From Coprinopsis marcescibilis (taxonomy: Eukaryota; Basidiomycota; Agaricomycetes; Agaricales; Psathyrellaceae), in the NCBI GenBank assembly GCA_004369085.1, contig ML210202.1, positions 98,465-162,464 on the forward strand: a DNA stretch of 64,000 nucleotides, read 5' to 3'. Positions within the stretch are counted from its first letter, which is position 1. Every line of letters begins with the position of its first letter. Positions 21,538-63,681 of the stretch are shown piece by piece. The notes under the pieces are model-generated. The model searched no databases. It was given only the letters and a program-made list of their open reading frames with translations, and had not been told where the DNA came from. The translations under genes were made by a program, and so were the position numbers.

Positions 21538-22559
21538 TTACAGTTTGCCGAGGTGAGCAGCAGTGGTCGACTGACCAGCTGCCTTGGCACGCTTGCGGAG
21601 CATTTGGGTAGACTTGTTGCCACGGATTCCTCCACCCCATTGGCGACGGTTCTCCTCGTACTTGTCGGAGCTAAGAGAATAACAGTCGATAAACGATTTT
21701 AAGAAAAATAATAGCAACGTACAAGTTGGCCTTGGCGGCAGAAACGAGGGTGGCAAGTTCGCGTTGATCCTCGCTCTTGACGTCCTGGAGGGCGACAACA
21801 GCGGCGGTCTTCTTGTGGACCACTGTCCCGAGCCTGGCCTTGCCCTTGACGATGACGTAGGGGACACCCATCTTGCGGCAAAGAGCAGGGAGGTAGACCA
21901 CCAACTCAATGGGGTCGACGTCGTGGGCGATAATGACGAGGGAAGCCTTCTTGGCCTCGACCAAAGCGACGATGTGGTTCAAGCCGTACTTGGCGAACAA
22001 GGGCTTCTTGGTGTCCTTGACCTCCTTACCCTCTGCGGTGGAAGCGGCGGTGGCGACAAGACGAGCCTTCTTCTCCTGCTTCGACTCGGGGCGGTACTTG
22101 TTGAGGAGCTTGAAGAGCTGGGTGGCGGTGTTCTTGTCGAGGGTGTGGCTGAACTGAGCGATAGCGGGGGGAACCTTGAGACGCTGGTTCAAGATGACCT
22201 TCTGGCGTTGAAGGCGGACATATTCGGGCCACTTGACGAAGCGGGTGAGGTCACGGACGGGCTGAATGTCCTGGCCTATAGACTCAATTCATTAGTTTCA
22301 ACGATATTTAACGGAATATGGAAGGACGCACCAACGCCGAAGTTTTTGGGGGTTGCCTCGAAGAGAGGGTTCTTCTTGGCCTTGGTGGGCTTGCTGGCAC
22401 CGAAAGGAGCAGAAGCGACCTTCTTGGTAGGCTTGACTTTGGGAGGCTGGTCATTGAGACGGAAGTCAGGATCCAGCATCAAAAATGCACAGAAATCGAC
22501 TCCGGAGCTCTAACGTCGTGCAGATATCATCGACCCCAATGTATTGGGACCTCCACCAT
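21538..22559 (-). CDS. RPL8: 60S ribosomal protein eL8 (L8/L7a)
   Basis: Component of the large cytosolic ribosomal subunit. Diagnostic segments are [20 protein letters not shown] and [14 protein letters not shown], then [80 protein letters not shown] and the end [19 protein letters not shown]. The L7Ae-type RNA-binding fold is complete. Introns lie near 22278-22332 and 21671-21722. The first coding exon is probably just ATG at 22559-22557, followed by a donor (gtggaggt), with PPKVKPTKK resuming after an acceptor near 22462. An alternative is the in-frame Met at 22482. Expected to be strongly expressed. Confidence 0.93.
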
Positions 22560-31700: not shown

Positions 31701-33005
31701 CTACAAGCCGAAAAAGTCCATCGCCACAACCTCAGTACCGCTCTCCGGTAACCCATGACCAGCACCCTGACCCGAAAACGTCTCCAGTAACCCATTCCCA
31801 TACACCTGCTTCGTCCACCCCTGCCTCGGGTTCCCCGCAAACGTCCCAGTCGGCGTCTGCGAGATGTTGAAAATGTTAGTCCATTGCTTCATCTGCTCCG
31901 CCAAATTCTTATGATCCAGCGCGAAATCGTTCGTGCCATGCCAGATCTGCATCTTAGGGTACGGGCCTGTGTAGCCTGGGTAGGCGCGCCGGACACGGTC
32001 GCCCCACTCTTGAGGTGAGCGGATTACGGTACCACTCTGGCAAGGGTCTGGCGGGAATTGGGGTGTGTTGGCAGCGAGACAGCCGACTGCAGTCCCGGCC
32101 CAGACTGCACCTGCAGTGAAGAGGTTGGGGTACGTGGCGGCCATGATGTTCGTCATCATTGCGCCAGAGGATGTGCCGGTGACAAAGACTTTCTTGGGGT
32201 CGATGTTCCAGTTTGTTAGGGCGTATTCGACAGCGGATGCGATGCCTGTGCTGTCATCACCCCCGTCGTGTGTGAGGGATGCAGTGCTGGTTATATCCCA
32301 GCAGTTGGAGCTACCTGGGGGGGACTGTCCGTAGAGGACCATGAAACCGCGTTGGTCGGCGTGTTGGCGGAAGCCTGGGAAGCCCGAGAAGTATTGCTGT
32401 TGGGATTCGGTTAGAGGATAGAACAGACGGGGAATATGCAGGCGGTGAGAACGTACAGACGCAGTACCACCGCAAGGGTGCAGAGCGACGAGAAGGCCCG
32501 GGCGGACTTTGACACTGGATGGCTTGTAGACGTACATGCTGATGTTGCTTGGGTTGCGCCCAAAGTTGCTGAGTTGGGTGAGTTGGCCTGCTGGGATGTT
32601 CGGTGCGGGGGTGCTGGTGGCAATTGGTGCTGAGGTTGTGGTTGATACCACTGGGGGCAGGGAGGTGGTTGATACGACAGGGGGTGCGGGGGTCACGGGC
32701 GTTCCTCCGGTGTTCTGACATTGGGAGTACCCTGTTAAATGATGAATTGTGTCGTGAGTATACATATTAACTGGATCATGGACGCGTGAGAGGCGCTGAC
32801 ATTCGTTTACCCTGATGCAGGCTAGACCAGCGTCACATTGGGTGGATCCCTGATAGCCAGTACCTCCGCCTGAAGGTGTTCAGTTCGAATGGATTGATAA
32901 AATGTTGATGCGACACTTACATTGGCCGTACAAAGGAACGGCTGTAACAGACGTAACGATGGAAGCCATTGCGAGGATGCTTGCGAAACGAGGAGTGAGG
33001 ATCAT
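31701..33005 (-). CDS. Secreted carbohydrate esterase family 1 (acetylxylan/feruloyl esterase) with N-terminal CBM1
   Basis: The start at 33005 gives a signal peptide (FASILAMASIVTSVTA). A CBM1 follows, spread over three exons: YGQCGGTGYQGSTQCDAGLA, CIR and GYSQCQ. All four cysteines and the aromatic positions for cellulose binding are present. A Thr/Pro/Ser-rich linker leads to the esterase domain: LLVALHPCGGTAS, FMVLYGQSPPGSSNCWDI and the nucleophile elbow VFVTGTSSGAMMTNIMAATY (G-x-S-x-G). Next come MQIWHGTNDF (acid region) and GQGAGHGLPESG (catalytic His region), ending VAMDFFGL at 31701. It should remove acetyl or feruloyl groups from xylan outside the cell while tethered to cellulose. 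One intron inside the catalytic domain (near 32395-32457) happens to be in frame. Confidence 0.9.
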
Positions 33006-38492: not shown

Positions 38493-41400
38493 ATGACTTT
38501 GATTTTCCCCACAACATTGTCATTCACCGGAAAGAACGGACCCAAAAACGTTGGAACAACCACTCTTGCCAATTGTGGAGCAGACGATCAATTCATCAAT
38601 CAGAACTATGCACGAAAAATAAAAATTCCCCTTACTCGACTCACCACTCCGATCCCCGCACAAAACGTCGATGGTACCCTGAACAAAAATGGTACTATCC
38701 AATTCTACGCAGATGCACACATCATGATTCACAGACGACAATTCAAAGAACGATTTTATGTCACTGGCCTTGGACAGGAAAAGATCATTCTCGGAGCACC
38801 CTGGCTTCGAAAAACAAATCCCTTGATTGATTGGAAAAACGGAACACTCTCTTGGCGAACGAAAGAATTTTCAAGGGTTACCCAAGCTCTCCTTAAATAC
38901 CTTTGAACCAAGAAAACAAAGAAACAAACAGACCCCACACAGGAAGATATCGACACAGCCCTCCTACACAACTTTCAAGGAAAAGAAAGTCCGCACCTTT
39001 GCACAATTTGGATTTGGGCCAAATCAACGATCACACAAGAACTAGCAGTTGCTGAAGACACTTTGGCCCTTACCTTGGGACAACGAATACCGGAAGAATA
39101 TCATGACTATATGGACATTTTCGATAAGAAGAAAGCCGATTGATTTCCTGACTCGAAACCTTGGGATCACAAAATCAAGTTGAAAGACGGCTTCATTCCT
39201 AAATCGTTTAAAACATACAACCTCACCTTAGACGAACAAAAGGAACTGGAGAAGTTTATTCAGGAAAATCTTGTCAAAATGTACATTCGACCCTCGCAAT
39301 CACCAAACGCCGCACCATTCTTTTTCGTAAAAAAGAAACAGATCGTTGAAGATGGAAAGATTAAAACCCCGCTCCAACCTTGTCAAGACTATCGCTATCT
39401 CAACGAATGGACGATCAAAAACGCCTACCCACTTCCACTCATCACCGAACTCCTAGACAAACTAAAAGGAGCGAAGTATTTCACTAAATTGGACGTACGA
39501 TGGGGTTACAACAACATCTGAATCAGAGATGGTGATCAATGGAAGGTGGCATTTAAAACAAATTTGGGACTATTCGAACCGACAGTCATGTTTTTCGGCA
39601 TGTGCAACTCCCCGGCAATATTCCAAGCAATGATGGACCACATTTTCGACAAACTCAAAATGGAAGGACATTGCATTATCATTTACATGGACGACATTCT
39701 CATCTTCACCAAAACCAAGGAAAAGATGATCGAATACATGCGAAAAACCCTCCAAGTGCTAAAGGATAATGACCTTTACTTGAAACCAGAAAAATGCCAA
39801 TTTTGTCAAACTCGCATTGAATACCTCAGCATGATCATCGAAGAAGGACGAATTTCCATGGACCCCAAGAAGGTCGCTGGAATTCAAGACTGGCCCGCCC
39901 CGAAAACCATGAAACAAGTACAATCTTTCCTAGGATTCGGAAACTTTTACTGAAGATTCATTTGCGGATATTCGGAACTGGCAAAATTGATGAACAAACT
40001 CCTTCAGAAAGGGGTATCATTCGAATGGACACCACAACGACAAACGTCATTCGATACCTTGAAGAATCGATTCACTGAACAACCTGTTCTGATCATGCCC
40101 GATTTGGAAAAACCTTTCCAAGTCGAATGCGACGCTTCAAAATATGCAACAGGAGCCGTCCTCACCCAATGCAACGCCAACAGAGCTCGTCATCCAGTTT
40201 CTTTTATATCGAAAACCCTATCACCAACCAAACACAATTACAAGATATACGACCAAGAACTTTTGGCTCTTATACGAGCCTTTACCAAATGGCGTCATTA
40301 CTTAATGGGAGCTCAACATCCGATCGAAGTACTATTGGACCACAAAAATCTCTCCTATTTTTGAGAAACACGAAAACTGAACCGACGACAAGCAAGATGG
40401 TACACATTCCTCACTGAATTCAACTATCGATTCAACTACACACCCAGAAGTAAAATGGTACAGTTGGACGCACTTTCTCGACGACCGGATCACCTCCCTG
40501 AACACGGCGATCATGACAACAAAGATATGATTCTCCTTTCAGAAGAACAATTTCTGAAAGAGGTCAACTTGAACCTGATGAACGTCGACCTACTGGCACA
40601 AATTTTGGATCAACCAGAAGAAAACTTCGATGTCGGAATGGCCAATAAAATCCAAGATCTTTTGAAAGACAAAGACATCCCAACCAAATTATGAAAAGAC
40701 CTGGCAGATTGGCATACGGAATCCAAAGACGGGAAAACAGCACTATTCTCTTGTGGGAAAATGTACATTCCCCAGAATCAAGAACTTTGACGTCAGATTA
40801 TACGCGACCACCACGACCCGATCCTCGCTGGACATCCAGGAGAACTCGAAACCTTTTACAAAGTCAGTCAGAATTACTGGTTCCCCAGCATAAGAGGAGC
40901 CGTACGAGACTACGTCAAAGGATGCGCCACATGTCAACAGTTCAAGATCAATCGTCAACCATTGAAACTGACCCTTATCCCAAACAAATCAACAGGATCA
41001 CATCGACCTTTCGCATTCGTAACAATGGACCTTGTGTCTGGTCTACCACCCATTGAAGAAAACGGGACAACGTACAACTCTATCTTGATCCAGGTGGATC
41101 AAGGACTTACTAAGGGGGTGATTTTCACTCCTTGCAACAAAGAAGTTGATGCTGAAACCACAGCAAAAATGATCATCGACTCAACCTTCAAAAGGTTCAG
41201 TATTCCCGAAAGAATCATATCCAACAGGGGACCAAACTTTGCAGTGAAATCCCACTGGGAAGTTTTGAAGAGACTAGGAATTGACTCTCGACTCTCTACT
41301 GCTTATCACCCCCAAACCGATGGAAATTCCAACCGAGGACTCCAAGAAGTTCAGACATATTTGGGAATTTATTGCGTAAATCACCCCAAAACTTGGAAAG

Positions 41401-42068
41401 ATCACCTCCCTATGCTTGAATTCACATATAACAACCGACGACACGCGGACAACCAGAAGACACCATTTGAATTAATCATGGGACTCCAACCACAAGGCAT
41501 CCCAGAAGCATTTGAACAATCGAACATCCCATCGGTAGAAGAAAGAATGACGGATCTTACCCTATCTTGGAAGGAAGCAATTTCCGCACACAAGCTAGCC
41601 AGAAATCAGATGATCAGCAGATCACAAAATGACGTCAAACCTTTCAAACTTGGCGACAAAGTATGGCTAGAAGCCAAGAACCTCAACTGGCGATACCTTT
41701 CCAACAAGATAAGACCAAAACGGGAAGGACCCTTCGAGATAACAGAAGTCATAGGACCAGTTTCTTATCGCCTTGCCTTACCGGACCAATGGAAAATCCA
41801 TGACATCTTCCACACAATATGATTATCTCCATATACGGAAACCGACATGCACGGACCCTCCCACACCACGCCACCACCCGACCTCATCGATGGACAAGAA
41901 GAATACAAAGTGGAGTTGATTATCAATCACAAAAAGCGAGGGAGAGGTCATCTGTTCCTCGTCCAATGGAAAGGATACCCGTTATCCAAAGCATCATGGG
42001 AACCTCCTTGTCACTTGATCAATGCCACTCGGATCTTGGAAGATTACAAGAAGATACATCGACTATAA
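38493..42068 (+). pseudogene. pol: Retrotransposon pol (PR-RT-RH-IN-chromodomain) with in-frame TGA codons
   Basis: A single frame ending at the TAA at 42066-42068, interrupted only by TGA at 38904, 39141, 39519, 39951, 40362, 40692, 40788 and 41820. Order: protease (TLANCGADDQFINQ); reverse transcriptase ([47 protein letters not shown] intact); RNase H (DASKYATGAVLTQ, KIYDQELLALIRAF); integrase with its zinc module (HHDPILAGHPGE and GCATCQQ) and the catalytic region (VTMDLVSGLPP, ISNRGPNFAV, HPQTDGNSNRG). The chromodomain at about 41900-42060 reads YKVELIINHKKRGRGHLFLV and QWKGYPLSKASWEP. Several catalytic residues are altered: the protease Asp and the second integrase Asp both read Asn. Not expected to make active enzyme. 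Confidence 0.9.
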
Positions 42069-50110: not shown

Positions 50111-50560
50111 TCCTACCGTCATCTCGTTCTTTGCCACTGAAGCAACATACGCTTCTCCACAATCTTCGTTTTTCGCTCGATTGCCTGCGGTCGCGCGATG
50201 GAAAGGTGGAACTCCGCTCTATACCCTGACGCTTATTCCCTTCCGACCGTAGTCTTGGATCATACTGGAGGAAGTAGAAGTTTGATGCCTCGCGTGTGGA
50301 TTGTATTGCCCCAGTACCACCTGAGGAGAGGTCCTTTCTGACTCCATGCGATCACTATGATCATAAGAATTAACTTATGTGTAAACGTCGGGATTTTATC
50401 GATCTCTTGTCGCGAAAATCTTGCGAGGGGCATGACGAGGTTTAAATACTGCTACTTATTTTGTTTGCTCGACAGAAGGACAACTCACAAGTTCCTGCAT
50501 TACCATAACCACTTACCTCACTCCCACTTCGCCCAACTTCATCTCTAATCTCCAGTCATC
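50111..50560. other. Promoter region of the acetate transporter gene
   Basis: A tttaaatactg sequence near 50441 is a possible TATA element about 120 bp before the ATG. A CT-rich leader (ccacttacctcactcccac) follows, usual for strongly expressed fungal genes. Confidence 0.4.
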
Positions 50561-51386
50561 ATGTCTTCCAACGGAAAGAGTACCTCTGTCGAAAAGGTCG
50601 AATACGGTCAGCCACAAACCCCAATGACGCTCCCACCTCCACCACCCATCAACCTGAACATCGGCAACCCAAGTCCTGCGTAAGTTCACCTCGGCGTCTA
50701 ATATATTGCTTCACTAACATTGATCCCAGTGGAATGTTCGCATTCTCTGCCACCATGCTGCTCATGGCACTCTACAACTTGGGCGCCGGTGGGATCACAA
50801 CACCGAACGTCTTGGTTGGTATGCTCGTCTTTGCTGGCGGTATTGCGCAGTTCTTTGTCGCCCTTCTGGAATTCTTGAAAGGCAACTGTCTCTATGCGAC
50901 TTGTATGTATCTTCTATCCCTTTTCAATTTACTCGTCAAACTCACTCGCTTTCAGGCTTCATGACTTTCAGCACATTCTGGGCCAGTTATGCTGCCGTTC
51001 TCATTCCCGGATTTGGCATCGTCCAAGCATTCACCGATCCCTCTGAAATCCCCAGAGCAATTGGCCTTTACCTCTTTGTTTGGTGGATAACGATCACCAT
51101 GCTGTTGATCGCCGTCATCGGAAAGAGTACACTCTTCACCATCCTCCTCGCCTTCGCTTCCACCGCTGTGCTCGTCCTCGCATGTGGCCAATATCTTGAA
51201 CTCGCTGTGTAAGTTCCATTCATATTTTTTAACATTTGTAACCAGTCGACTCATAAAACCTCTTCCAGCCTGGGTGTCGTCGGAAACTCTCTCTTGATTG
51301 TCGTTTCCTCATTAGCATACTACATCGGCCTCGCCATTCTCCTTCTGTCTGAGCCAGGCGCCGTCTTCACCTTGCCCATGTTCTAG
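50561..51386 (+). CDS. GPR1/FUN34/YaaH family acetate transporter
   Basis: Four exons: 50561-50679, 50730-50902, 50956-51208 and 51269-51386, all joins in frame. A polar, Pro-rich N-terminus leads to the family signature NPSPAGMFAFSATMLLMALY, followed by NLGAGGITTPNVLVGMLVFA. Six hydrophobic helices follow, including GGIAQFFVALLEFLKGN, CFMTFSTFWASYAAVLIPGF, IGLYLFVWWITITMLLIAVI, TILLAFASTAVLVLACGQYL and SLLIVVSSLAYYIGLAILLL. Length (about 220 residues) and topology are normal for plasma-membrane acetate/succinate uptake proteins of the Ady2/Ato type. In relatives, expression follows carbon source; nothing in the promoter proves this here. Confidence 0.93.
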
Positions 51387-52716: not shown

Positions 52717-55700
52717 TCACGCATCACTCTTCCAACCTTCGGTTCCCTGCCCAGCAACGTCCGTCTTCTTCTCCACAACCGAATCCTTGTCAGCCGCGCG
52801 GTTGACCCACCCGGCAGGATTGCCGATATTACTCAACAGCGAGTGTCGCTTATCGGAAACAATCTTGAACTGTGATTCCTTACCTAAACCATCCAATTCG
52901 CAATTAGAACAATAGCGAACCAACATCGCGAACGAAAAGAACGCACCAGAAGTAGACGAAGTCGAACTTGATGTCTTGATCGACCCGCCAACCGCACCGC
53001 GCTGGACCTTGATATCCGTAGCTGCATCGGCTTCCTTTGCTTTCGCTTGAGAACGGTTGAACAACTACATGGAGTAAATGGTTAATATCAGAAACATATT
53101 TGCAAAATCCACTAGAAGATGGTGGATGGTAAACAAACATACCTCTTTGAGCACTTCGGTTCGGCTCTCGCCCTCTGTAACCTTGGCATGTTCCATCCTG
53201 TCACGAACACCGACAAGCTGTCCGTCGACGTACTCCAAGCCAGTCTTCAACCCATCCTGAATCGCCTTCTGGATCTGCTTCTTGACGAGACCAGTGGCGA
53301 GCGGTCGGAGGGTCTTGTACAAAAAGTCATGCTTGGAGTCGCGAATGGAGAACTTGAGGTTGTCGACCTTCACGGTAACATCTTGAACGTGGAAGATGGA
53401 TGAGCGGTCACGAGTGGTCGAGACGAGGGTAACATGGGCCTGCAATGGAGTAAGCAGAGTCCAGCGATCAGCGAAACGAAGCATGATAAACGAATGCTGA
53501 ACCGTGCTTACATTAACACCCTCCCCAGATATCAGAACGTCGGCGAGGCCGCTATCCTTCATCTTGGGGATACCGGTCTTCTTTCGATAATAGAAAGCGA
53601 CGTCCCGCATATCGGCCTGTATGTGTTGAAGCGTGAACGTAATCTTATGATGGCCCTCATCTGCAATGCGGAAAATGAGCTATAGATACCCCCAATCGAA
53701 CAACAGTATTAACTTGCCTGGGATAGCATCGTACGGAGAGAACCTGACGTGATTGTGGATATCGAATGAGACAATATTGGGGAAGAGGTTTCGGCCTTGC
53801 AGAGTGAGGTTCTCGATGACGAGGTCCAATGATTCGTCGGTATACTCGATACGGGGGATGGGGATGTATCCGACCTATGTCACCAGCCAATCAGAAACCT
53901 ACCCTAAAAACGGAAAGGGGCAAGAGCATACCTTCTGGATCAGCTGTGGCAAGATCACCTTCCTGATGTCGTTCCAGAGCTCGGGCTTAAACTGCAGTTT
54001 ACCCTCGTTGTCGAATAGAAGATCCTTTGTCAGTCGTGCCCAATCGTCGCCGAATTCCTTGTTCAACTGTAGAAACATAGATCAGCGGGTGTGGAGAGCG
54101 AAACATAAGAAGCACATACGGGGTCTTCACCCATTGCCTTGGCCCAATTACCGATGCTGTTGAACAGGTTGTCGAAGTGACTCTTGTATTTGCCTTCGTA
54201 GAAATGACGACCGGATTCGCGGAGGCGGCGGCCCTGGTTGTCGCAGTCGGGTTCAATAATGTATCCTGGCTCCAACAGAACCTGATATCCCAGTTAGTAC
54301 ACCTCCTAGTATAATAGACAATTCAAAACGACATACCCTTCTCATCCACGCGTCCACAGCCTTGAACCACCCACGGAGCTCTTCATCTCGACGGGTATCA
54401 TCAACAACAACGTCGATCGCGTCGAAAATCATGTCCATAGATGTGTTGTTCGCAAATCGCTCAAGCAAAGTGCGCAATTCAAGAGTCGCCAATTTGACAG
54501 GGTGCGACTACGAAATGTGTTGTCAGTGCTGTACAGCTATATAAGGCTAATCGAGGACCCACTTTGTCTGCAGGAACTTGGTCGCGAACGCGGCTCCCTG
54601 TGGTTTGCTGGATGGATTGAGCGTGATTGACGTATTCTTCCAAATAGCTAAGAAGCCATCGCATGGAAGCTTGGTAGTCGTCATGCTTCTGGCATTCGAG
54701 GATAACCTGGACGATAGTGTTGAGAAAGCGAAAAGGGTCAAGAGATACGAGGCATGCATACCTTCTTTCCGCGGAAAATAAATTGATCCCTGCGTTCTTC
54801 GGGGAAGTACTCCTCGCTTAGGAACTTCTTGCCCCGCTCGAATTTGCCGTTAGCTTGGTCCTTGCGATCTTGAGGAACGCGGTCAGAGAACCCATCCTAG
54901 AGAATGTGCAGTTAGCTTCAATTGCGCTGCAAGCTGCCAACACAAGTCATACCCTGACATTGTCACGAACTTCCCTCATCTTCCCCATGAACCCCTTCTT
55001 CTTCTGCTCTTTTCCTTCCTCATCGCCTTGTTCGTCCATCTCGCGATATTCGTCCGCGTGGTGTGCAGCTTCACCAAGAGCCTCCTTGCCTACATGGGCC
55101 CCTCGCTGCTTAGCACCCTGGTACAGCTGCTGGTTCTCCTGAACTACATCACCCACAGGTTTCCGACCCTCTTGCCCAAACTTATCTTGGTCCTGGACGA
55201 AAGCAGAATCCTCTTTGGGGTGGTGTCGGATCTTCTTGCCGGTGAAAGGGATAGTGCCCTCGAGGACCGGGGTCTCATTAGGCCCAGCAATGCGACCACC
55301 CTCGGTGATGAACTGATCGTTGGGTGCCGATTCGTCTACGTGAGCGAGACGGTCGGCGTCGGGCGAGATGCTTTGAGCAGCCTTTACTGCCCCTTTGGCC
55401 AAGAGATCCCGACCGATGACACTGAAATCGGAAAGGAGCTTCCGGGCCTCACTATTGGTGAGGACGAGAGTGAGCAGAGTGCGGAGATGGCGGACGGCTA
55501 GCCAGGAAGAGAAACGTTAAAGACCACATGGATTTGACGGCAACAAAAAGTAACGTACCGTCTTCGCCGTCCTTCTTCGCCTTATTGCTGTCGACGGTGC
55601 CAGTGGCTGCTTCGGCGACCATGTCGCTGATCTTCACGTTGCTCTCATTGGAGGCACCTTGGGTGTGCCAGACAAAGTTTTGGAAGAGCTCATCGCCATT

Positions 55701-56046
55701 CTTCTCCTTGACCATGAGTTTTGCTGTGCCGACAATATCTTTGACATCTTGTACGAGTTTCTGACCGTCCGGCGATAGCTTCTGGGTCGTGACTGGGGAG
55801 TGTTTCAGAACGTAGTCGAGTGTCCTGTCAATCTGGGCGTTCGATGGAAGTCGGCCCTTTCGGAATGCTTGAATTACACCGTACAATCGAAGCTGACGAC
55901 CACTATTAGCCAAATTCCCCTTGTGGAGGCTGCAGACGTACCTTTCGCTCGACATCTGCGGCCTGGGCGCGTTTGTCGACTGGATCAACAACTGAACCGC
56001 GTTTCGGATGGACGCCTACGTCCTTGGAGGCTTGTGGTAGAGACAT
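52717..56046 (-). CDS. HAM1-like protein (N- and C-terminal HAM1-like domains)
   Basis: Large fungal protein of about 850 residues in about ten exons. The start at 56046 gives MSLPQASKDVGVHPKRGSVV, and after a first intron LRLYGVIQAFRKGRLPSNAQ. The HAM1-like N-terminal domain includes LLSDF..., DGFSDRVPQDRKDQ, RGKKFLSEEYFPEERRDQFI and LEYVNHAQSIQQTTGSR-like helices. The middle and C-terminal part (VGYIPIPRIEYTDESLDLVI, ENLTLQGRNLFPNIVSFDIH, ITFTLQHIQADMRDVAFYYR) looks like a TULIP/LEA-like beta-rich lipid-binding fold, and it ends at 52717 (GTEGWKSDA). I recognise the conserved YFPEERRDQFI block as typical of HAM1-like fungal proteins. A role in membrane or lipid biology is an inference. Confidence 0.75.
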
Positions 56047-57376: not shown

Positions 57377-57466
57377 CTTAAATACAAGCCAGAACCGTCT
57401 CGAAATGCTCAGTAGCTGGTCTCTCCCAACCCTTTCTTCTACGCTAGACTCGCAGGCCGTGTCTAC
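57377..57466 (+). promoter_or_regulatory. Core promoter and 5'-leader inverted repeat, peptide gene A
   Basis: TATA-like ccttaaatac at about 57377. A conserved agctggtctctcc follows near 57413, then the inverted repeat CTAGAC-N11-GTCTAC at 57444-57466, 59 nt before the ATG. The same order occurs before the other two paralogues. Confidence 0.55.
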
Positions 57467-57524: not shown

Positions 57525-58150
57525 ATGAAGGCTGCATTCATTGTCTCCGTCTCCGCCGTTACCTTGTCGGCTGTCCTGCCCTCGATTGCTGCCCCCATTC
57601 AATCGTCTGAAGACAGCCTTGTTGAGCGCTCCCCGGAGCCATTCCTCCCATTGCTGTTCAGGGCTGGCGCGTAAGTCTCGGCTCATTCCGCAGCCAATTG
57701 AACAGACCTGCTGACTGCTTGATCGTCAACAGAGGTGTTGTCAACGCCATCTCAAACCGAAGGAGGAAACGCGACCTCGAAGATGCCGACCTGTTCGAAC
57801 GCGAGGTCTACGATTCTGTAGACCTCGCCGAACGTGAGCCATTCTTCCTTCCGGCTCTGGCTGGTTGGTAAGTGCACAGCTCCTCTCACCCTCTCCCCTG
57901 CATCACCGTCTTCACCGGAAGTGCCCGTGACAATAATTTATGTACTTACTAAATTACTCCTTCTACCCTCAGGGTCGCTGGCAAGTTCATCACGAAGAAG
58001 AAGAAGGATAACAAGAAGAAGGAAGAAAAGGTCGAAGAGCGGGACTACGACTATATTCTGGAAGATGTCATCTTGCGCGATTTCTACGACTTCGAACTTG
58101 ACGATATCTCGACCCGAGAGCTCGAGGCAATGCTGGACGAGTTGGATTAA
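57525..58150 (+). CDS. Secreted repeat-peptide precursor A (Kex2-processed type)
   Basis: Exons 57525-57670, 57733-57867 and 57973-58150. Signal peptide MKAAFIVSVSAVTLSAVLPS (cut near IAA|PIQ). Copy 1 of the core follows LVER: SPEPFLPLLF, then RAGAGVVNAISN and the basic site RRRKR. An acidic spacer (DLEDADLFER, DSVDLAER) leads to copy 2: EPFFLPALAGWVAGKFI, followed by a Lys-rich run instead of a clean KR site. The tail YDFELDDISTRELEAMLDEL, ending in Asp, is acidic. Introns fall within both cores, as in the two paralogues downstream. Expected to enter the secretory pathway and be cut by the Golgi Kex2 protease. It is the most divergent member, and peptide activity is unknown. Confidence 0.8.
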
Positions 58151-59320
58151 ACGTAATAGAATTCGGGGCGTGGGTGTAATCATAAATTTAATATCATCAA
58201 ATTCCATATCCATCTGCATTACCAGTGATTGGTAGTGCTAGCCCACACATTGCACAGTGGCCAGAGTGATTTAGGAGACACTCTTTATCGTCAACACTAA
58301 CAATCGATGATTGCGAGATGGGTTTACAATGTGGTCCGTCAGATGGGATATCTGTTCAGCAAGTGTCGAGCCTGCCTGAAGGAGGATGTCGGAACCGATA
58401 TATCCGGACGCTCTGAAATAAATGATGGCAAGGACCATTGTGTCAACATTGCACAGGTACAACCCTTCCGACATTCCGATTGCCACCAGATTTGACTTTT
58501 GAACCACCTGATGAACCCGTGACACTTGATGCCCCGTTGCTATTTCAGCCCTTGCAGCCCGAGATATTATGAAAGCCAAAGATCATGACCAACAAAAGAA
58601 GAGCATGTTTGTGCGTGACGGTGCTGTTCACCCATGGCTGTGAGGAACATCCAACTCTTGTTGATAGTTAAGAATGTGCTTAGCGCAGAGAAAGTGATGA
58701 AGGGAGATAAAGGGGCCATAACCTTGAGATGGCTGAGATGCCTCTATCATTCTAGCACATAGAGACCGTATCTAGTAGAAACATGATGTCTAGATACCCG
58801 ATTGTCTCGAGGGTGGCTCAACAGATGCACATTCGAACACATACTAGGTTACGGAATCGGATACCGCCTCATGTAACAACGAGACGGCTTAGGGTCCCCA
58901 TGCTTCATTGTCGTCGCTCAAGATGCCCTACAGGGAAGACAATATCTGTCAAGCCTTTATAGTGTAAATCAAGACTTCGATGCTGCTGAGTCTGAAGCAC
59001 CAATGCCCTCGGCGGATAGAAACTCTGAGCCAGCCTGGCCAGTCCTACATAGTACACACGCACCTCTATGTCCAAGCCGTACAGCACGGCCCCTAGCCGC
59101 GGCCCATTTAAATCCTGAAACTCGCGCCCAGCGCTAAGTTTAAAACTGAATACACTTCTAGGACAGATTCAAGATGCCGCGCCAATTGATCACCTCTTTC
59201 GATTTTTGATTATCCCATCGACCACATCTCGAGATAATTGACATTGCCGAAAGCTGAGTAGATGGACAGGTCACAGGTGTACTGACCTAATCGCGCAGCA
59301 GTCGGCTATCCCCTCCTCAG
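58151..59320. other. Intergenic between peptide genes A and B
   Basis: About 1.2 kb with no ORF of interest. Confidence 0.5.
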
Positions 59321-59414
59321 CCCTTAAATAAGGACAGACATGGCTACGACTCCTCAGCAGCTGGTCTCTCACTCCCACTCCTACTCACAAGCTAGACACG
59401 CAGGTCGCGTCTTC
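59321..59414 (+). promoter_or_regulatory. Core promoter and 5'-leader inverted repeat, peptide gene B
   Basis: TATA-like cccttaaata at 59321-59330, cagcagctggtctctc near 59356, then CTAGAC-N11-GTCTTC at 59392-59414, 65 nt before the ATG. It matches the leaders of genes A and C. Confidence 0.55.
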
Positions 59415-59478
59415 ATTGTCCAACTAAATCAACTCATCCTCATCACATCTTACCTACCTCACCTTTTAATCTTTAAAC

Positions 59479-60249
59479 ATGAAGGCCGCCGTCATCATCT
59501 CTGCTTCCGCTGTTGTTCTGTCCGCTGTTGTGCCCACCATCGCCGCCCCCATCCAAACTGAGGAGTCTATCGTCGAACGTTCCCCAGAGCCTTTGTTCCC
59601 GTTGCTCTTGTAAGTACATCGCCTATAACCATATCAACCTCTCTTACTAACGACTTCCGACAGTGGCCTTGGATCGTAAGTTTCAGCGCATGCTCGAGTA
59701 TCCACGACCTTCTCACAATGACATCCAGAGCTATCGCAGGCGCCGTCCGCAGGAAGCGCGACCTCTCTGACGCCGGCGAGATCGAAGCCCGCTCAGAATA
59801 CGTAGACTTGGCTGAGCGAGAGCCTCTCTTCCCACTGCTCTTGTAAGTATACTTTGAGATCTGACTGTAGCAGACACAACATTCTAACTCCATTCCAACA
59901 GTGGTCTGGGCTCCGCCATCGCAGGCGCTGTCCGAAGGAAGCGTGACCTTTCTGACTCAGGGATGGAGCTCGACGCCCGTGAATATGCAGACCTGGCCGA
60001 GCGAGAGCCACTCTTCCCGTTGCTCTTGTGAGTCCCCTCCAAATTGCCATAAAGTGAAGTTGATCTAATTTCAAACACCTCAATAGTGGCCTGGGCTCTG
60101 CCATTGCTGGTGCTGTCCGCAGGAAGCGTGATTTGTCGGACGCCGAGCTGGAGCTGCTCGAGCGTGACTATGAGGGCTTTGAAATCCGGGGTTTTATCGA
60201 TGAGCTCGATGCCCGGGAGTTCGAAGGTATCTTGGATGAGCTGGACTAA
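59479..60249 (+). CDS. Secreted repeat-peptide precursor B with three identical cores
   Basis: Exons 59479-59609, 59664-59675 (12-nt microexon), 59729-59842, 59902-60027 and 60087-60249. Signal peptide MKAAVIISASAVVLSAVVPT (cut near IAA|PIQ). Three cores share PLFPLLF plus GLGSAIAGAV, each preceded by a Glu-Arg site and X-Pro dipeptides (VER-SPEP, AER-EP, AER-EP) and closed by RRKR. Spacers start DLSD and are acidic (EIEARSEYVDLAER, MELDAREYADLAER). The tail DELDAREFEGILDELD matches the tails of A and C. An intron cuts every core at the same codon (TT|T, Phe before GLGS). Core residues are identical across copies while spacers vary, as expected when only the released peptide is under strong selection. 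Confidence 0.88.
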
Positions 60250-61024
60250 GTAGTGACCTCGTTTTCACCAGAACGACTTGGGTCAAATAAGTGACTTAAA
60301 TTATTCATATTGATTAATAATTATAATGTCATCGCTTTCCTCAATTACTGTGTACCGAGCCAGGCCAAGGGCATAATAAATGTCTGCAAATACCAGTCAG
60401 GCGCCAGGCCGTTCGGACCACAGAATCGCATGTATTCCAGGTTTGATGGTGTTCTAACTTTATGTCCCACAGTGAAACATTCTTTGTCCCCGACAAAGCA
60501 TGAATGCTCAGAGGTGTATGACACAATGATCCAGTGCCCTCGTTAAAAAGCCTAGGCGCTGTGGTTGCTACGCGCGCTTATACATGTTGGATTACTTTTA
60601 TCGTTCCTTTTTCTATTCGCTGTCATTCCGAAATCCCGTCATTTTAGCCGTCAATATATCATTTCCCATACTTTCTCTGTACACTGCGTAGAGATATATA
60701 AACATTGAAATCACCGACCCTGGAATGGATCGGCACGAAGACCCATAGGTGCAGTCTGGGAGAAGATACCTTCGAGCCTGCAAGCAATACAGACTACGGG
60801 AGTGGAAAGATCCCACCCGAGATCTTCTTGAAGTGTGTCAATGATGATACTGAGTAGCTATCTACCGTTAGTTCCAAGGTTATTTGTTTAATGTCTCAAT
60901 GACCAGGCACTCTCATCCGTGATGCGGTGTATCAAAGTTATGGGGACGAGCCCGCAGCATTACCACACGGACGTCCAGGACCCGCTGATGTAGCTACATT
61001 CTCGCACGGACCAGGTAAAGTCTT
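60250..61024. other. Intergenic between peptide genes B and C
   Basis: No ORF with recognisable features. Confidence 0.5.
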
Positions 61025-61121
61025 CCTTTAAAAAGAGTTGTCGCTTCATATGTAAATTCAGCAGCTGGTCTCTCCCTCTCACTTACACTCTCCCTAATCT
61101 AGACTCGCCGGTCGCGTCTAG
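61025..61121 (+). promoter_or_regulatory. Core promoter and 5'-leader inverted repeat, peptide gene C
   Basis: TATA-like ctttaaaaag near 61025, cagcagctggtctctccct at about 61060, then the perfect repeat CTAGAC-N11-GTCTAG at 61099-61121, 68 nt before the ATG. Confidence 0.55.
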
Positions 61122-61188
61122 TAAACTTAAACCCTTGCTTAACAAGTCAACCCTATACACAGTCCCCTTCACAATATTTTCAGCAGAG

Positions 61189-62200
61189 ATGAAGGCCTCC
61201 ATCCTTACTTCAGCCACCTTCGCGCTTTACAGCGTCGTTCCAGCTCTATCAGCCCCCGTTCATGCTGCAATTCAGCAACGTGAAGTCGAAGTTGAGAACC
61301 GACAGGCAGAGCTGGTTGAACGATCCCCCATGTGGGGTGTATTGCTGTGAGTACCTCATCGCTTTCAATCTATCTCCCACCCACTTTAACCCTCCTTCTC
61401 TACAGCCGCGGGCTTCAGCCAACTATCAACGGGTGCGTCTTGTTCTCATATATTTAGGGAGCCGAGTGTTCAAGTGCGACATTGTAGCATGTTTAAACAA
61501 GCACTGGGACGTAAGCGGGATCTTTCCGATACTGGACTCGACGATGTGTTTGAGAGGGACCTCCGGGTTGAGGATATGGAACGACGCGGAACACTCGAAG
61601 CAGAGCTATATGAGCGATCGCCTATGTGGGGAGTACTGCTGTAAGTACCTCCGTCACTCTGGCAAAAATATATCCTCTTTAACTGTCTTACTCTATGTAG
61701 GCGCGGGCTTCAGCCGACCGTCAATGGGTACGTGAAATGTTTAAGTCAAGGATATAACGCGCGTTGACGGGACATTATAGCATGTTTAAACAGGCATTAG
61801 GCCGAAAGCGCGATCTTTCCGATGCAGGGCTCGACGATGTATTTGAGCGTGACCTCCAGGCTGAGGATATGGAAACACGTGAACTTGACGCAGAGATATT
61901 TGAGCGATCGCCTATGTGGGGGGTACTGCTGTGAGTACATCCATTACCCCGCCTGGTTCCAAATTAATCTCACCTCTCCATTAGCCGTGGCCTCCAGCCA
62001 ACCGTCAACGGGTACGTCTAATATTTCAACTATATGCATGGATGGCGAGCGCTAACGAGGGACATTATAGCATGTTTAAGCAAGCACTGGGACGTAAGCG
62101 TGATCTTTCTGACGCTGGGCTCGATGACATATTTGAGAGGGAGCTCGAGGCTGAGATATATGCTCGGGAAATGTTGGAGTACCTGAACGAAATGGATTGA
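61189..62200 (+). CDS. Secreted repeat-peptide precursor C with three cores, each split by two introns
   Basis: Seven exons: 61189-61346, 61406-61432, 61488-61640, 61701-61727, 61781-61930, 61985-62011 and 62071-62200. The start at 61189 is chosen over an upstream in-frame ATG (61135) because MKASILTSATFALYSVVPAL is a signal peptide like those of A and B. Three cores read SPMWGVLL, RGLQPT(I/V)NG, MFKQALG and end with RKR. Each core follows a Glu-Arg site (LVER, LYER, IFER). In every copy one intron lies after GVLL and another after NG, so RGLQPT(I/V)NG is a 27-nt exon each time. Spacers start DLSD(T/A)GLDD and are acidic. The tail AREMLEYLNEMD parallels A and B. The core is hydrophobic and cationic, so a membrane-active or signalling peptide is possible but unproven. 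Confidence 0.88.
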
Positions 62201-62530: not shown

Positions 62531-63681
62531 TCAAACTTCTGTCGTGGTCTGTGTAGCTGATTCTGGTGCAGCGAAATGAAGTGAATGTGTAACCACACTC
62601 TCTCCTGCCTTCCATCCAGGTGCCTTGACCCATGACCGTCCAGTGGCCACGCGGAAGATAATCCACTGCGGCGCCATCTCCTGCATTATTGTTATTAGGC
62701 TTCATTGTCACTAAGCGTACTCGACGGATTGACCTACCACAAAGAAGTTGTATGCAAGCGCAGCGACCCCATAGACCTTGTAAGGCACATCACCCCTCAA
62801 CGGCACAGTGCACGCATAAATGATCCCAAACAGAACCACAGGGGCTGCAGACTCGATTAATATCGCCACGACCCCGAGGTACACTTTAGTGTCGGAGCTT
62901 AGGATCGTTGACTTCAGGGCCTTCCGCATGCGTATCAAGCGGAGGGAAATGGCGGCTGTGATGTAGATGTTGGAACCGAGCTTCAGACAGGTGATCGTCA
63001 TCAGGTACGGCGCGTTTGCGAGGTTCAAAAGCAGCTCCACCGGAATGAACGTGCGGATCATCAACGCTAAGTTTGTATGGTGAGCTTGGAGTACTATAGT
63101 CGGCGGAAGGACGGGAGTTACGCACCTAGCATGGCAAGGTAGGCTAAGCATGGGAATACGATGACTTTGTAGTTCCAGATAATGTAAGTTCGATAGATCT
63201 AGAAGCTCATCAGCGTCAATATAGCAGATTGAGGGCAGCACTCTCAAGCCCTTACTTTTACTTACCAGCAATGCATCGCCTATGAGCACCGAGAACCAAA
63301 ATGAGGCAGCCGCGACGATGGTCGAGGTGGACGAATAGAAAGGAACTGCAGGGGATAGATCTTCCAGGTTGAAACCGACCGCACTGACTATATGATAAGC
63401 AGTCCAGTTATTGCAAACAGCAGAGATAAGACCGAGTGAGCAGAGAACGAAGCTCGCTAGGAGGTACAGAGCTCGTCCCTGTCGCGCCTTCCGTGGCGTC
63501 TCAAAGTACAATATCAGCCCGTAAATGCACATAAAGGCCTGCATTGCTACGAGAGGGGAACGTCAGAAGCAGGAAAGACTCGCTGTGAAGACGGTAAAAA
63601 CACACACGCGGATGCAATTCCAACACCAGCGTTTCCTTGAGTGATGCCCAAGAAATATGCGTTCGTGCTGAGATCGCCCAT
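62531..63681 (-). CDS. Fungal seven-transmembrane protein (uncharacterised Agaricomycete family)
   Basis: Exon 1, from 63681, reads MGDLSTNAYFLGITQGNAGV. Then come AFMCIYGLILYFETPRKARQ (helix), ALYLLASFVLCSLGLISAVC (helix) and STSTIVAAASFWFSVLIGDA. A short exon gives YRTYIIWNYKVIVFPCLAYL, then LGSNIYITAAISLRLIRMRK and VYLGVVAILIESAAPVVLFG. The last intron removes about 62749-62694 and restores the family ending APQWIIFRVATGRSW. A polar tail ends at 62531. Motifs RxYIIWN, ILIESAAP and FRVATGRSW recur in a large Agaricomycete family of 7-TM proteins without known ligand. Confidence 0.78.

What the first reader, a model, noticed from the sequence alone, without database searches (positions are those of the whole stretch)
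57525..62200. Cluster of three paralogous secreted repeat-peptide precursors
Seen: three same-strand genes in 4.7 kb, each with a signal peptide, one to three hydrophobic/cationic cores (PLFPLLF with GLGSAIAGAV in B; PMWGVLL, RGLQPTVNG and MFKQALG in C), basic KR-type sites after the cores, acidic spacers and a common tail. Known: fungi make Kex2-processed multi-copy precursors (alpha-factor, Ustilago repellents, KEP/RiPP peptides). Inference: this is a basidiomycete family of secreted peptides diversified by tandem duplication. I know of no described family with these cores.
Basis: partly seen in the sequence, partly recalled or inferred. Interest (0 to 1): 0.9.

Follow-up and report, generated by a model that had tools for sequence, protein, structure and literature searches.

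The report
Mushroom genes for multi-copy secreted peptides
Three neighbouring mushroom genes each encode a secreted protein that looks built to be cut into short, greasy peptides with a positively charged end, and relatives in other fungi suggest a large, barely studied family that may serve chemical defence.

Summary
The window is Coprinopsis marcescibilis; its three same-strand genes are A 57525-58150, B 59479-60249 and C 61189-62200 (152, 181, 223 aa). A and C equal deposited hypothetical proteins; no deposited B was found. Each has a signal-like start, two (A) or three (B, C) cores, acidic spacers and an acidic tail. Correction: C's three motifs are one 27-aa core on three exons, used three times; B's two motifs are likewise one core.

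Core copies within B or C differ at 9-13 synonymous codons per pair but 0-1 residue, so the peptide is under selection. All 12 introns are phase 2 and inside cores. All 8 cores follow lone Arg plus X-Pro; this fits Kex2, Ste13 and Kex1 trimming, and kexin and DPPIV-type genes exist.

Relatives occur in other Agaricales and, more distantly, in ascomycetes. A second cluster (contig C193) shares core-splitting introns and a promoter element but lacks the X-Pro.

Best reading: a new family of Kex2-processed repeat proteins releasing linear, membrane-active, probably defensive peptides. Processing is inferred; activity is untested. The class (KEPs) is known; I found no description of this family.

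The parts
57525..58150 (+). Gene A, precursor of 152 aa (exons 57525-57670, 57733-57867, 57973-58150)
   Evidence: splice model; equals deposited FA15DRAFT_694509 = P0003
57630..57772 (+). A core 1 (SPEPFLPLLFRAGAGVVNAISN + RRRKR), split by phase-2 intron 57671-57732
57836..58006 (+). A core 2, diverged (EPFFLPALAGWVAGKFIT + KKKK), split by phase-2 intron 57868-57972; aligns by eye with the third unit of P0004
59479..60249 (+). Gene B, precursor of 181 aa (exons 59479-59609, 59664-59675, 59729-59842, 59902-60027, 60087-60249)
   Evidence: splice model; cores 2 and 3, which lack the second intron, read the same peptide as spliced core 1
59587..59759 (+). B core 1 EPLFPLLFGLGSAIAGAV + RRKR (preceded by SP) on three exons, one a 12-nt micro-exon (59664-59675)
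59820..59944 (+). B core 2, same peptide
60005..60129 (+). B core 3, same peptide
61189..62200 (+). Gene C, precursor of 223 aa (exons 61189-61346, 61406-61432, 61488-61640, 61701-61727, 61781-61930, 61985-62011, 62071-62200)
   Evidence: splice model; equals deposited FA15DRAFT_741830 = P0005
61324..61518 (+). C core 1 SPMWGVLLRGLQPTINGMFKQALG + RKR on three exons (middle exon 27 nt)
61618..61811 (+). C core 2 (V for I, otherwise the same peptide)
61908..62101 (+). C core 3, same peptide as core 2
57414..57423 (+). Shared promoter-proximal element AGCTGGTCTC of A, 36 bp after a TATA-like motif
59359..59368 (+). Same element of B, 35 bp after a TATA-like motif
61063..61072 (+). Same element of C, 36 bp after a TATA-like motif

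Best explanation
A, B and C encode secretory polyprotein precursors of a new family of Kex2-processed repeat proteins. After the signal peptide is removed, a Golgi kexin cuts after the basic run that ends each core (RRKR, RKR) and after the lone Arg that precedes it; a Ste13-type dipeptidyl aminopeptidase removes the X-Pro dipeptides; a Kex1-type carboxypeptidase trims the basic tail. This would free linear hydrophobic helical peptides of about 16-25 residues, some keeping basic residues; the acidic spacers balance and shield the cores inside the precursor. The peptides most likely act on membranes as defence against bacteria, other fungi or animals. Shown: gene structure, selection on the cores, statistics of the sites, family spread, presence of kexin and DPPIV-type genes. 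Inferred: cleavage, trimming, helix formation, membrane action, defence role.
For: Core copies: 0 residue changes against 9, 11 and 11 synonymous codons in the 3 B pairs; 0-1 against 10, 13 and 13 in the 3 C pairs; core dN/dS about 0-0.02 against 0.12 and 0.40 in the two spacer pairs compared. R-x-P: 232 seen against 64 +/- 7 in shuffles over 79 related proteins, and 29-62 at other spacings. In 18 proteins the 20 residues after R-x-P carry mean charge +2.0 against -3.4 after 188 other lone Arg; 55 of 61 against 37 of 188 are not net negative (Arg beside K/R, in the first 25 or the last 23 residues left out). Own genome: kexin P-domain (PF01483) at three places on two contigs, one DPPIV_N gene. 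For other C. cinerea KEPs, XP/XA removal and apparent cleavage after single Arg were seen in Pichia (PMC9769878). In the wider set 90 of 242 unique cationic acid-free segments are more amphipathic than permutations at p<=0.05 (about 12 expected). The Coprinellus core's only PDB matches are two magainin sequences, E 0.11 and 0.12, not significant alone.
Against: No expression, peptidomic or activity data for these genes. With the basic tail included, the window's cores are not significantly amphipathic (p 0.19-0.78); B and A1 become so only when I delimit the mature peptide by hand (B 0.002, A1 0.0004, C 0.059, A2 0.82). The window cores match nothing in the PDB. The X-Pro entry is not universal: 126 of 242 unique cationic segments have R-x-P at their start; the C193 cores and most Clonostachys proteins lack it. 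In C. cinerea six other KEP knockouts had no phenotype, and synthetic KEP peptides showed no antibacterial activity (PMC9769878). Spacers too are under purifying selection (dN/dS 0.12, 0.40), and paralog cores have dN/dS about 0.37, so there is no sign of an arms race. AlphaFold confidence is low (pLDDT 58).
Confidence: 0.6

Rival explanations
1. The peptides are surface-active structural peptides, like the Rep1 repellents of Ustilago: after Kex2 cleavage the hydrophobic cores assemble on aerial hyphae or fruiting bodies.
For: Window cores are strongly hydrophobic (mean Eisenberg H 0.77 for the hand-set B core); Rep1 peptides are Kex2-type products that form amyloid-like fibrils (PMC9769878 introduction).
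Against: Many relatives' cores are cationic with helical periodicity (strand periodicity was not tested); copy number is only 2-3 here; Rep1 sequence similarity was not tested.
Confidence: 0.2
2. The peptides are secreted signals (alpha-pheromone-like or hormone-like).
For: Same Kex2 plus X-Pro grammar as ascomycete alpha-pheromones and the alpha-like KEPs of basidiomycetes (PMC9769878); near-perfect conservation of copies within B and C.
Against: Cores lack the C-terminal Trp of several basidiomycete STE13-type peptides reported; they are long, hydrophobic and vary greatly between paralogs and species.
Confidence: 0.1
3. The uncut precursor is the product (an acidic secreted or wall protein with hydrophobic repeats) and the basic sites are incidental.
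For: No cleavage shown here; spacers are also under purifying selection; in some weak relatives acidic spacer dominates the protein (P0077).
Against: Selection contrast between cores and spacers, the R-x-P spacing and dibasic runs confined to core ends in B.
Confidence: 0.07

Closest known systems
KEX2-processed repeat proteins (KEPs; Le Marquer 2019 PMC6339444, Umemura 2020 PMC7329392, Vogt 2022 PMC9769878)
   Same: Signal-like start, repeated cores, basic Kex2-type sites, X-Pro dipeptides as in STE13-type KEPs, small secreted precursor in an agaricomycete
   Different: Cores are hydrophobic and helix-like; each starts after a lone Arg, not a dibasic site; acidic spacers; introns lie inside the cores (whether other KEPs have this was not tested); gene A has fewer than three repeats
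CC1G_02745 and CC2G_001735 of Coprinopsis cinerea (hypothetical proteins)
   Same: Relatives of B: 57% identity over 100% of B, E 2e-37; 34% over 93%, E 1.5e-19; same grammar
   Different: Core letters differ; CC1G_02745 is named in the main text of no paper held; CC2G_001735 was looked for in one paper only
Candidalysin precursor Ece1 (Candida albicans)
   Same: Kex2-released cytolytic peptide from a multi-peptide precursor (PMC9769878, PMC7329392); hydrophobic helical nature recalled
   Different: No sequence comparison was made; in Ece1 the lytic peptide is single, not repeated (PMC7329392 passage)
Magainin precursors of frogs
   Same: The Coprinellus relative's core weakly resembles magainin 2 (E 0.11); multi-copy precursor layout recalled, not tested
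   Different: Different kingdom, weak match, probably convergent; the window's own cores do not match

Membership tests
KEP (PMC6339444, PMC7329392) | N-terminal secretion signal | tested here: inconclusive
   Hydrophobic 11-residue peak within the first 20 residues and an A-P junction at residues 22-24 in A, B and C; no signal-peptide predictor was available
KEP | At least three repeats of at least 8 residues between Kex2 sites (criterion of PMC7329392) | tested here: met
   B and C: three cores each ending RRKR or RKR; counted by eye, the published pipeline was not run. Gene A fails: two cores only
KEP | Kexin in the genome | tested here: met
   PF01483: 4 matches over cut-off at three places on contigs C6 and C2; PMC9769878 speaks of three kex2 genes in C. 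cinerea and other agaricomycetes
KEP | Peptides actually released | not testable with these tools
   No peptidome
Dikaritin / ustiloxin-type RiPP | UstYa (DUF3328) gene near the precursor | tested here: not met
   8 UstYa matches, on C59, C72 and C280, none on C57 (best candidates only); the window ends at the contig end, so the far downstream side is not covered
STE13-type (alpha-pheromone-like) processing | X-Pro/X-Ala dipeptides after the Kex2 site | tested here: met
   All 8 cores of A, B and C start R-x-P, two of them (A core 1, B core 1) with a double X-P (sequences); the preceding site is a lone Arg, not dibasic
alpha-type pheromone | Pheromone activity, receptor | not testable with these tools
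   -
Cationic amphipathic antimicrobial peptide | Cationic amphipathic helix | tested here: inconclusive
   Wider set: 90 of 242 unique segments at p<=0.05. Window cores: none at p<=0.05; two of four (B, A1) with hand-set ends
Cationic amphipathic antimicrobial peptide | Antimicrobial activity | not tested
   bench only

The most novel reading that the evidence does not exclude
The window shows one corner of a large, cross-phylum fungal superfamily of gene-encoded helical defence peptides: polyproteins of hydrophobic or cationic cores masked by acidic spacers and freed at a lone Arg by kexin, in many members followed by Ste13 trimming. In its Coprinopsis core group every core is split by a phase-2 intron, so that symmetric exons can be duplicated, lost or reshuffled to make new peptides. 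It would be the fungal counterpart of amphibian and insect multi-copy helical peptide precursors.
Probability: 0.25. Interest if true: 0.85.

Novelty: new variant of a known kind. Interest (0 to 1): 0.62.

Why it matters
KEPs are widespread in fungi but most have no known function. Here the selection pattern says which part is the product, the sites predict peptide ends, and a close relative sits in Coprinopsis cinerea, a genetic model with published KEP peptidomics and CRISPR (PMC9769878). If the peptides are membrane-active, mushrooms have a large gene-encoded helical peptide arsenal that cysteine-based searches for defensin-like peptides would miss. The core-splitting phase-2 introns also offer a testable route for making new peptides by exon duplication and splicing.

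Tried and rejected
Pfam hits of the precursors (PEP-CTERM just above its cut-off in B, 22.8 against 20.7 bits; Metchnikowin, Cas_Cmr5, Fumarate_red_D, FdhE_N and others below theirs) were rejected as composition or short-motif matches; gene A had none. A 'fumarate reductase subunit D' label on P0001 and a 'PS II complex 12 kDa' label on P0002 were rejected as automatic labels. CC-AMP1, which I had recalled as a Coprinopsis peptide, is a Capsicum peptide: dropped. An RNA hairpin in the 5' leader was suggested by eye, but 5 of 5 leaders fold no better than shuffles (z -0.31 to 1.0): dropped. The AlphaFold model was too weak for a fold search, so none was run. Element CAGCTGGTCTC is not enriched genome-wide (34 against 31 for its reversed control); only its place before family genes matters. 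Positive selection between paralog cores: not seen. The idea that every family core is split by an intron fails for P0049, whose only intron (phase 2) lies after residue 30, outside its cores. The idea that X-Pro marks the whole set fails for g1 of C193, for 4 of 6 Clonostachys proteins (0 R-x-P; the other two have 1 and 2) and for P0070. In distant hits the acidic low-complexity spacer is a worry: a profile of the six close members scored 78 of 78 proteins above the best of 20 block-shuffles each (four of the 78 were rows of that profile and P0005 is the same protein as a fifth), but some margins are small (P0072 2.3 against 0.7 bits) and P0070 scores no better than its own reversal (6.4 against 6.9). 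Common descent for the weakest (P0063, P0070, P0072, P0076, P0077) and for the ascomycetes is not proven. A script to place P0070's introns found no solution.
Full report
What is there. The window is contig C57:98465-162464 of a 36.3 Mb assembly; C57 is 162464 bases long, so the window ends at the contig end. It is Coprinopsis marcescibilis, because genes A and C equal proteins deposited under that name from a contig of that length (P0003, P0005). Gene models have only GT-AG introns: A 57525-58150, B 59479-60249, C 61189-62200. No identical B protein appeared among the hits; that it escaped annotation because of its 12-nt micro-exon is my guess. The splice model of B has an internal check: its second and third cores lack the second intron and read the same peptide that core 1 reads after splicing.

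Anatomy. Each precursor starts with a hydrophobic signal-like stretch ending in A-P, then units of: acidic spacer, lone Arg, X-Pro (once, or twice in A core 1 and B core 1), hydrophobic core, basic run. The next spacer begins DLSD or DLED, except after A's second core; the tail ends DELD (A, B) or NEMD (C). B's dibasic runs occur only at the ends of its three cores; C has one further RR, A two Lys runs. All 12 introns of A, B and C are phase 2 and all 12 lie inside cores, none in signal, spacer or tail; they are not independent, since units were duplicated. The repeat unit is therefore a symmetric exon: duplicating or skipping it keeps the frame and always rejoins a front half-core with a back half-core (inference).

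Selection. Pairs of core copies differ at 9, 11 and 11 codons (B, 22 codons) and 10, 13 and 13 codons (C, 27 codons) without changing the residue, with 0 residue changes in B and 0-1 in C; dS is 0.7-1.9 and dN at most 0.022. The two spacer pairs compared show 4 of 19 and 8 of 32 codons with changed residues, dN/dS about 0.12 and 0.40: weaker but still purifying. In none of six core pairs did any of 20000 random mutation sets of the same size reach as few residue changes as observed (uniform mutation, no transition bias). The copies are thus old, translated and held to one peptide. Between paralogs the cores differ in residue at 12 of 22 (B-C) and 10 of 22 (A-B) codons, against 12 of 22 and 6 of 23 in the signal regions, with core dN/dS about 0.37: no evidence for positive selection.

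Family. One search with B gave 4 proteins, an alignment of six gave 17 at E<=1, and one of fourteen gave 70 at E<=0.1; together 78 distinct ids. About 8000 candidates were scored in each search, so these are lower bounds. The alignment of fourteen held three members that had only E 0.012-0.25 (P0015, P0016, P0017), so the E-values of their near relatives lean on that choice, and 6 of its 14 rows are not themselves in the list. Close relatives (E<1e-17) with a named source are C. cinerea and Coprinellus; wider ones are Cyclocybe, Flammula and, weakly, Agrocybe (E 0.23), Ephemerocybe (2e-5) and Tricholoma (0.009), and the ascomycetes Clonostachys and Cercospora zeae-maydis. Four relatives (P0001, P0004, P0006, P0010) are intron-free frames of 182-260 aa on contigs under 1 kb, which suggests spliced transcripts; their source could not be opened, so this is inference. 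A profile of the six close members scores 78 of 78 above 20 local-composition shuffles each, 77 of 78 above their own reversal (the exception is P0070). Over 79 proteins (78 plus B), R-x-P occurs 232 times against 64 +/- 7 in 500 shuffles (maximum 90), and R and P at other spacings 29-62 times; 70 of 78 proteins hold at least one. The proteins are related, so these are not independent events. Of 242 unique cationic acid-free segments, 126 have R-x-P and 186 have an Arg at their start. Acid-free runs of 14 residues or more number 312 against 118 +/- 8 in shuffles. 57 of 79 end in [ED][LM]D. In P0055 (Cercospora) several cores follow R-DAEADP, an X-Ala/X-Pro ladder like that of alpha-factor (sequence; R-x-A 11 times, R-x-P none; reading mine).

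A second cluster in the same genome. Searching with the Coprinellus protein P0008 gave contig C193 (one match, E 8e-4). There g1 (L032 minus strand, 269 aa, ends MDELD) carries five copies of FIG[KR]IFxGVxxxLGF-RR, each split by a phase-2 intron, 5 of 5 introns. Its cores follow a lone Arg but no X-Pro. They are less uniform: 0-5 residue changes per pair over 18 codons. A second gene g2 lies beside it on the same strand; I did not finish its splice model. Two further, weaker relatives lie on C43 (P0049) and C261 (P0070). P0049 has a single intron outside its cores, against the intron rule; in P0070 two exon matches meet at residue 103, inside its one cationic core, phase not determined. Direct searches with B and C found no other copies over E 0.001; three weak hits (C75, C59, C62; E 0.005-0.16) lie in open frames of 678-1414 aa that I did not examine.

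Promoter. AGCTGGTCTC occurs three times in the window, once 111-126 bp before each ATG (0.18 expected), and also before g1 and g2. In these five genes a TATA-like motif sits 32-36 bp before it (the TATA patterns were chosen after reading the sequences), which places the element near the transcription start (inference). Its core AGCTGGTC is not found in the fetched stretches around P0049 and P0070. Genome-wide CAGCTGGTCTC is no more common than its control (34 against 31); 4 of the 34 are those of B, C, g1 and g2, and the other 30 were not examined.

How it probably works. Kexin P-domains are at three places on two contigs, and one DPPIV_N gene is present; Kex1 was not searched. Vogt et al. (PMC9769878; abstract, introduction, two of three parts of the results, discussion and passages seen) report for other C. 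cinerea KEPs products that appear to come from cleavage after single Arg, removal of XA/XP dipeptides in Pichia, and tissue-specific peptides; six kep knockouts had no phenotype, and synthetic peptides showed no antibacterial activity. Their 22-31 putative C. cinerea KEPs are in a supplement that I could not read, so CC1G_02745 may be among them. UstYa matches are on other contigs, so a cyclised RiPP is unlikely, though the region beyond the contig end is unseen. The acid spacers would neutralise the cores in transit (inference). For the action I favour membranes: wider-set cores are amphipathic beyond permutation (90 of 242 unique segments at p<=0.05, 32 at p<=0.01), and the Coprinellus core's only PDB matches are magainins (E 0.11). 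The window's own cores are more hydrophobic and fail that test (p 0.19-0.78). With hand-set ends, 13 of 16 family cores reach p<=0.05; the other three are a C193 core (0.057), C (0.059) and A2 (0.82). Those ends were set after the first test had failed, and should be weighed so.

Literature. Ten searches found the KEP papers; no listing showed a description of this family, and CC1G_02745 is in the main text of no paper held. Le Marquer 2019: abstract, first of two parts of the results and one further section read; Umemura 2020: passages; PMC13324453 and PMC11591084: passages only. Subscription papers and supplements are not covered.

Neighbourhood. Of 36 frames of 150 aa or more in the window, 20 were scanned with Pfam and 6 had a match: a HAM1-like gene (two frames within 53065-56015, minus), a GPR1/FUN34-type frame (50509-50964), a retroelement-type integrase (40791-41822), an L7Ae-type ribosomal protein frame (21671-22288) and an esterase or peptidase frame with a CBM1 stretch (31701-32879). 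None is an obvious peptide-tailoring enzyme. Downstream of C a minus-strand frame (62711-63562) has no Pfam match.

Verdict. Observation confirmed, interpretation supported and sharpened. A new family within a known class, with an unusual combination: lone-Arg X-Pro entry, acidic spacers, core-splitting phase-2 introns, a shared promoter element. The peptide product is well supported; its activity is a hypothesis.

Noticed in passing
L032 (contig C193:49309-52425, minus strand) and L063: Second cluster of relatives in the same genome: g1 with five FIG[KR]IFxGVxxxLGF-RR cores, each split by a phase-2 intron, and a diverged neighbour g2 whose splice model I did not finish.
   Followed up: partly
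window 57414-57423, 59359-59368, 61063-61072; L032 upstream of g1 and g2: Element AGCTGGTCTC 32-36 bp after a TATA-like motif in five family genes on two contigs; possible start-site or regulatory element.
   Followed up: partly
window 59664-59675: 12-nt micro-exon inside B core 1; C has a 27-nt middle exon in each core. All are in frame if skipped, so splice variants with shorter cores are possible.
   Followed up: no
window 61059-61130 and matching stretches of A and B: Near-palindrome CTAGAC..GTCTAG (exact ends in C) about 35 bp after the element; as RNA it folds no better than shuffles, but it could be a DNA-binding site.
   Followed up: partly
P0055 (Cercospora zeae-maydis), P0018, P0019, P0021, P0024, P0032, P0044 (Clonostachys): Ascomycete precursors with a similar layout; P0055 has DAEADP ladders before several cores, Clonostachys cores follow a lone Arg mostly without X-Pro. 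Common descent or convergence is open.
   Followed up: partly
P0062 (Cyclocybe aegerita): UniRef calls this relative 'Antimicrobial peptide'; the basis of the name is unknown.
   Followed up: no
window 62711-63562, minus strand: Hydrophobic frame, possibly a multi-pass membrane protein, without a Pfam match, next to gene C.
   Followed up: no
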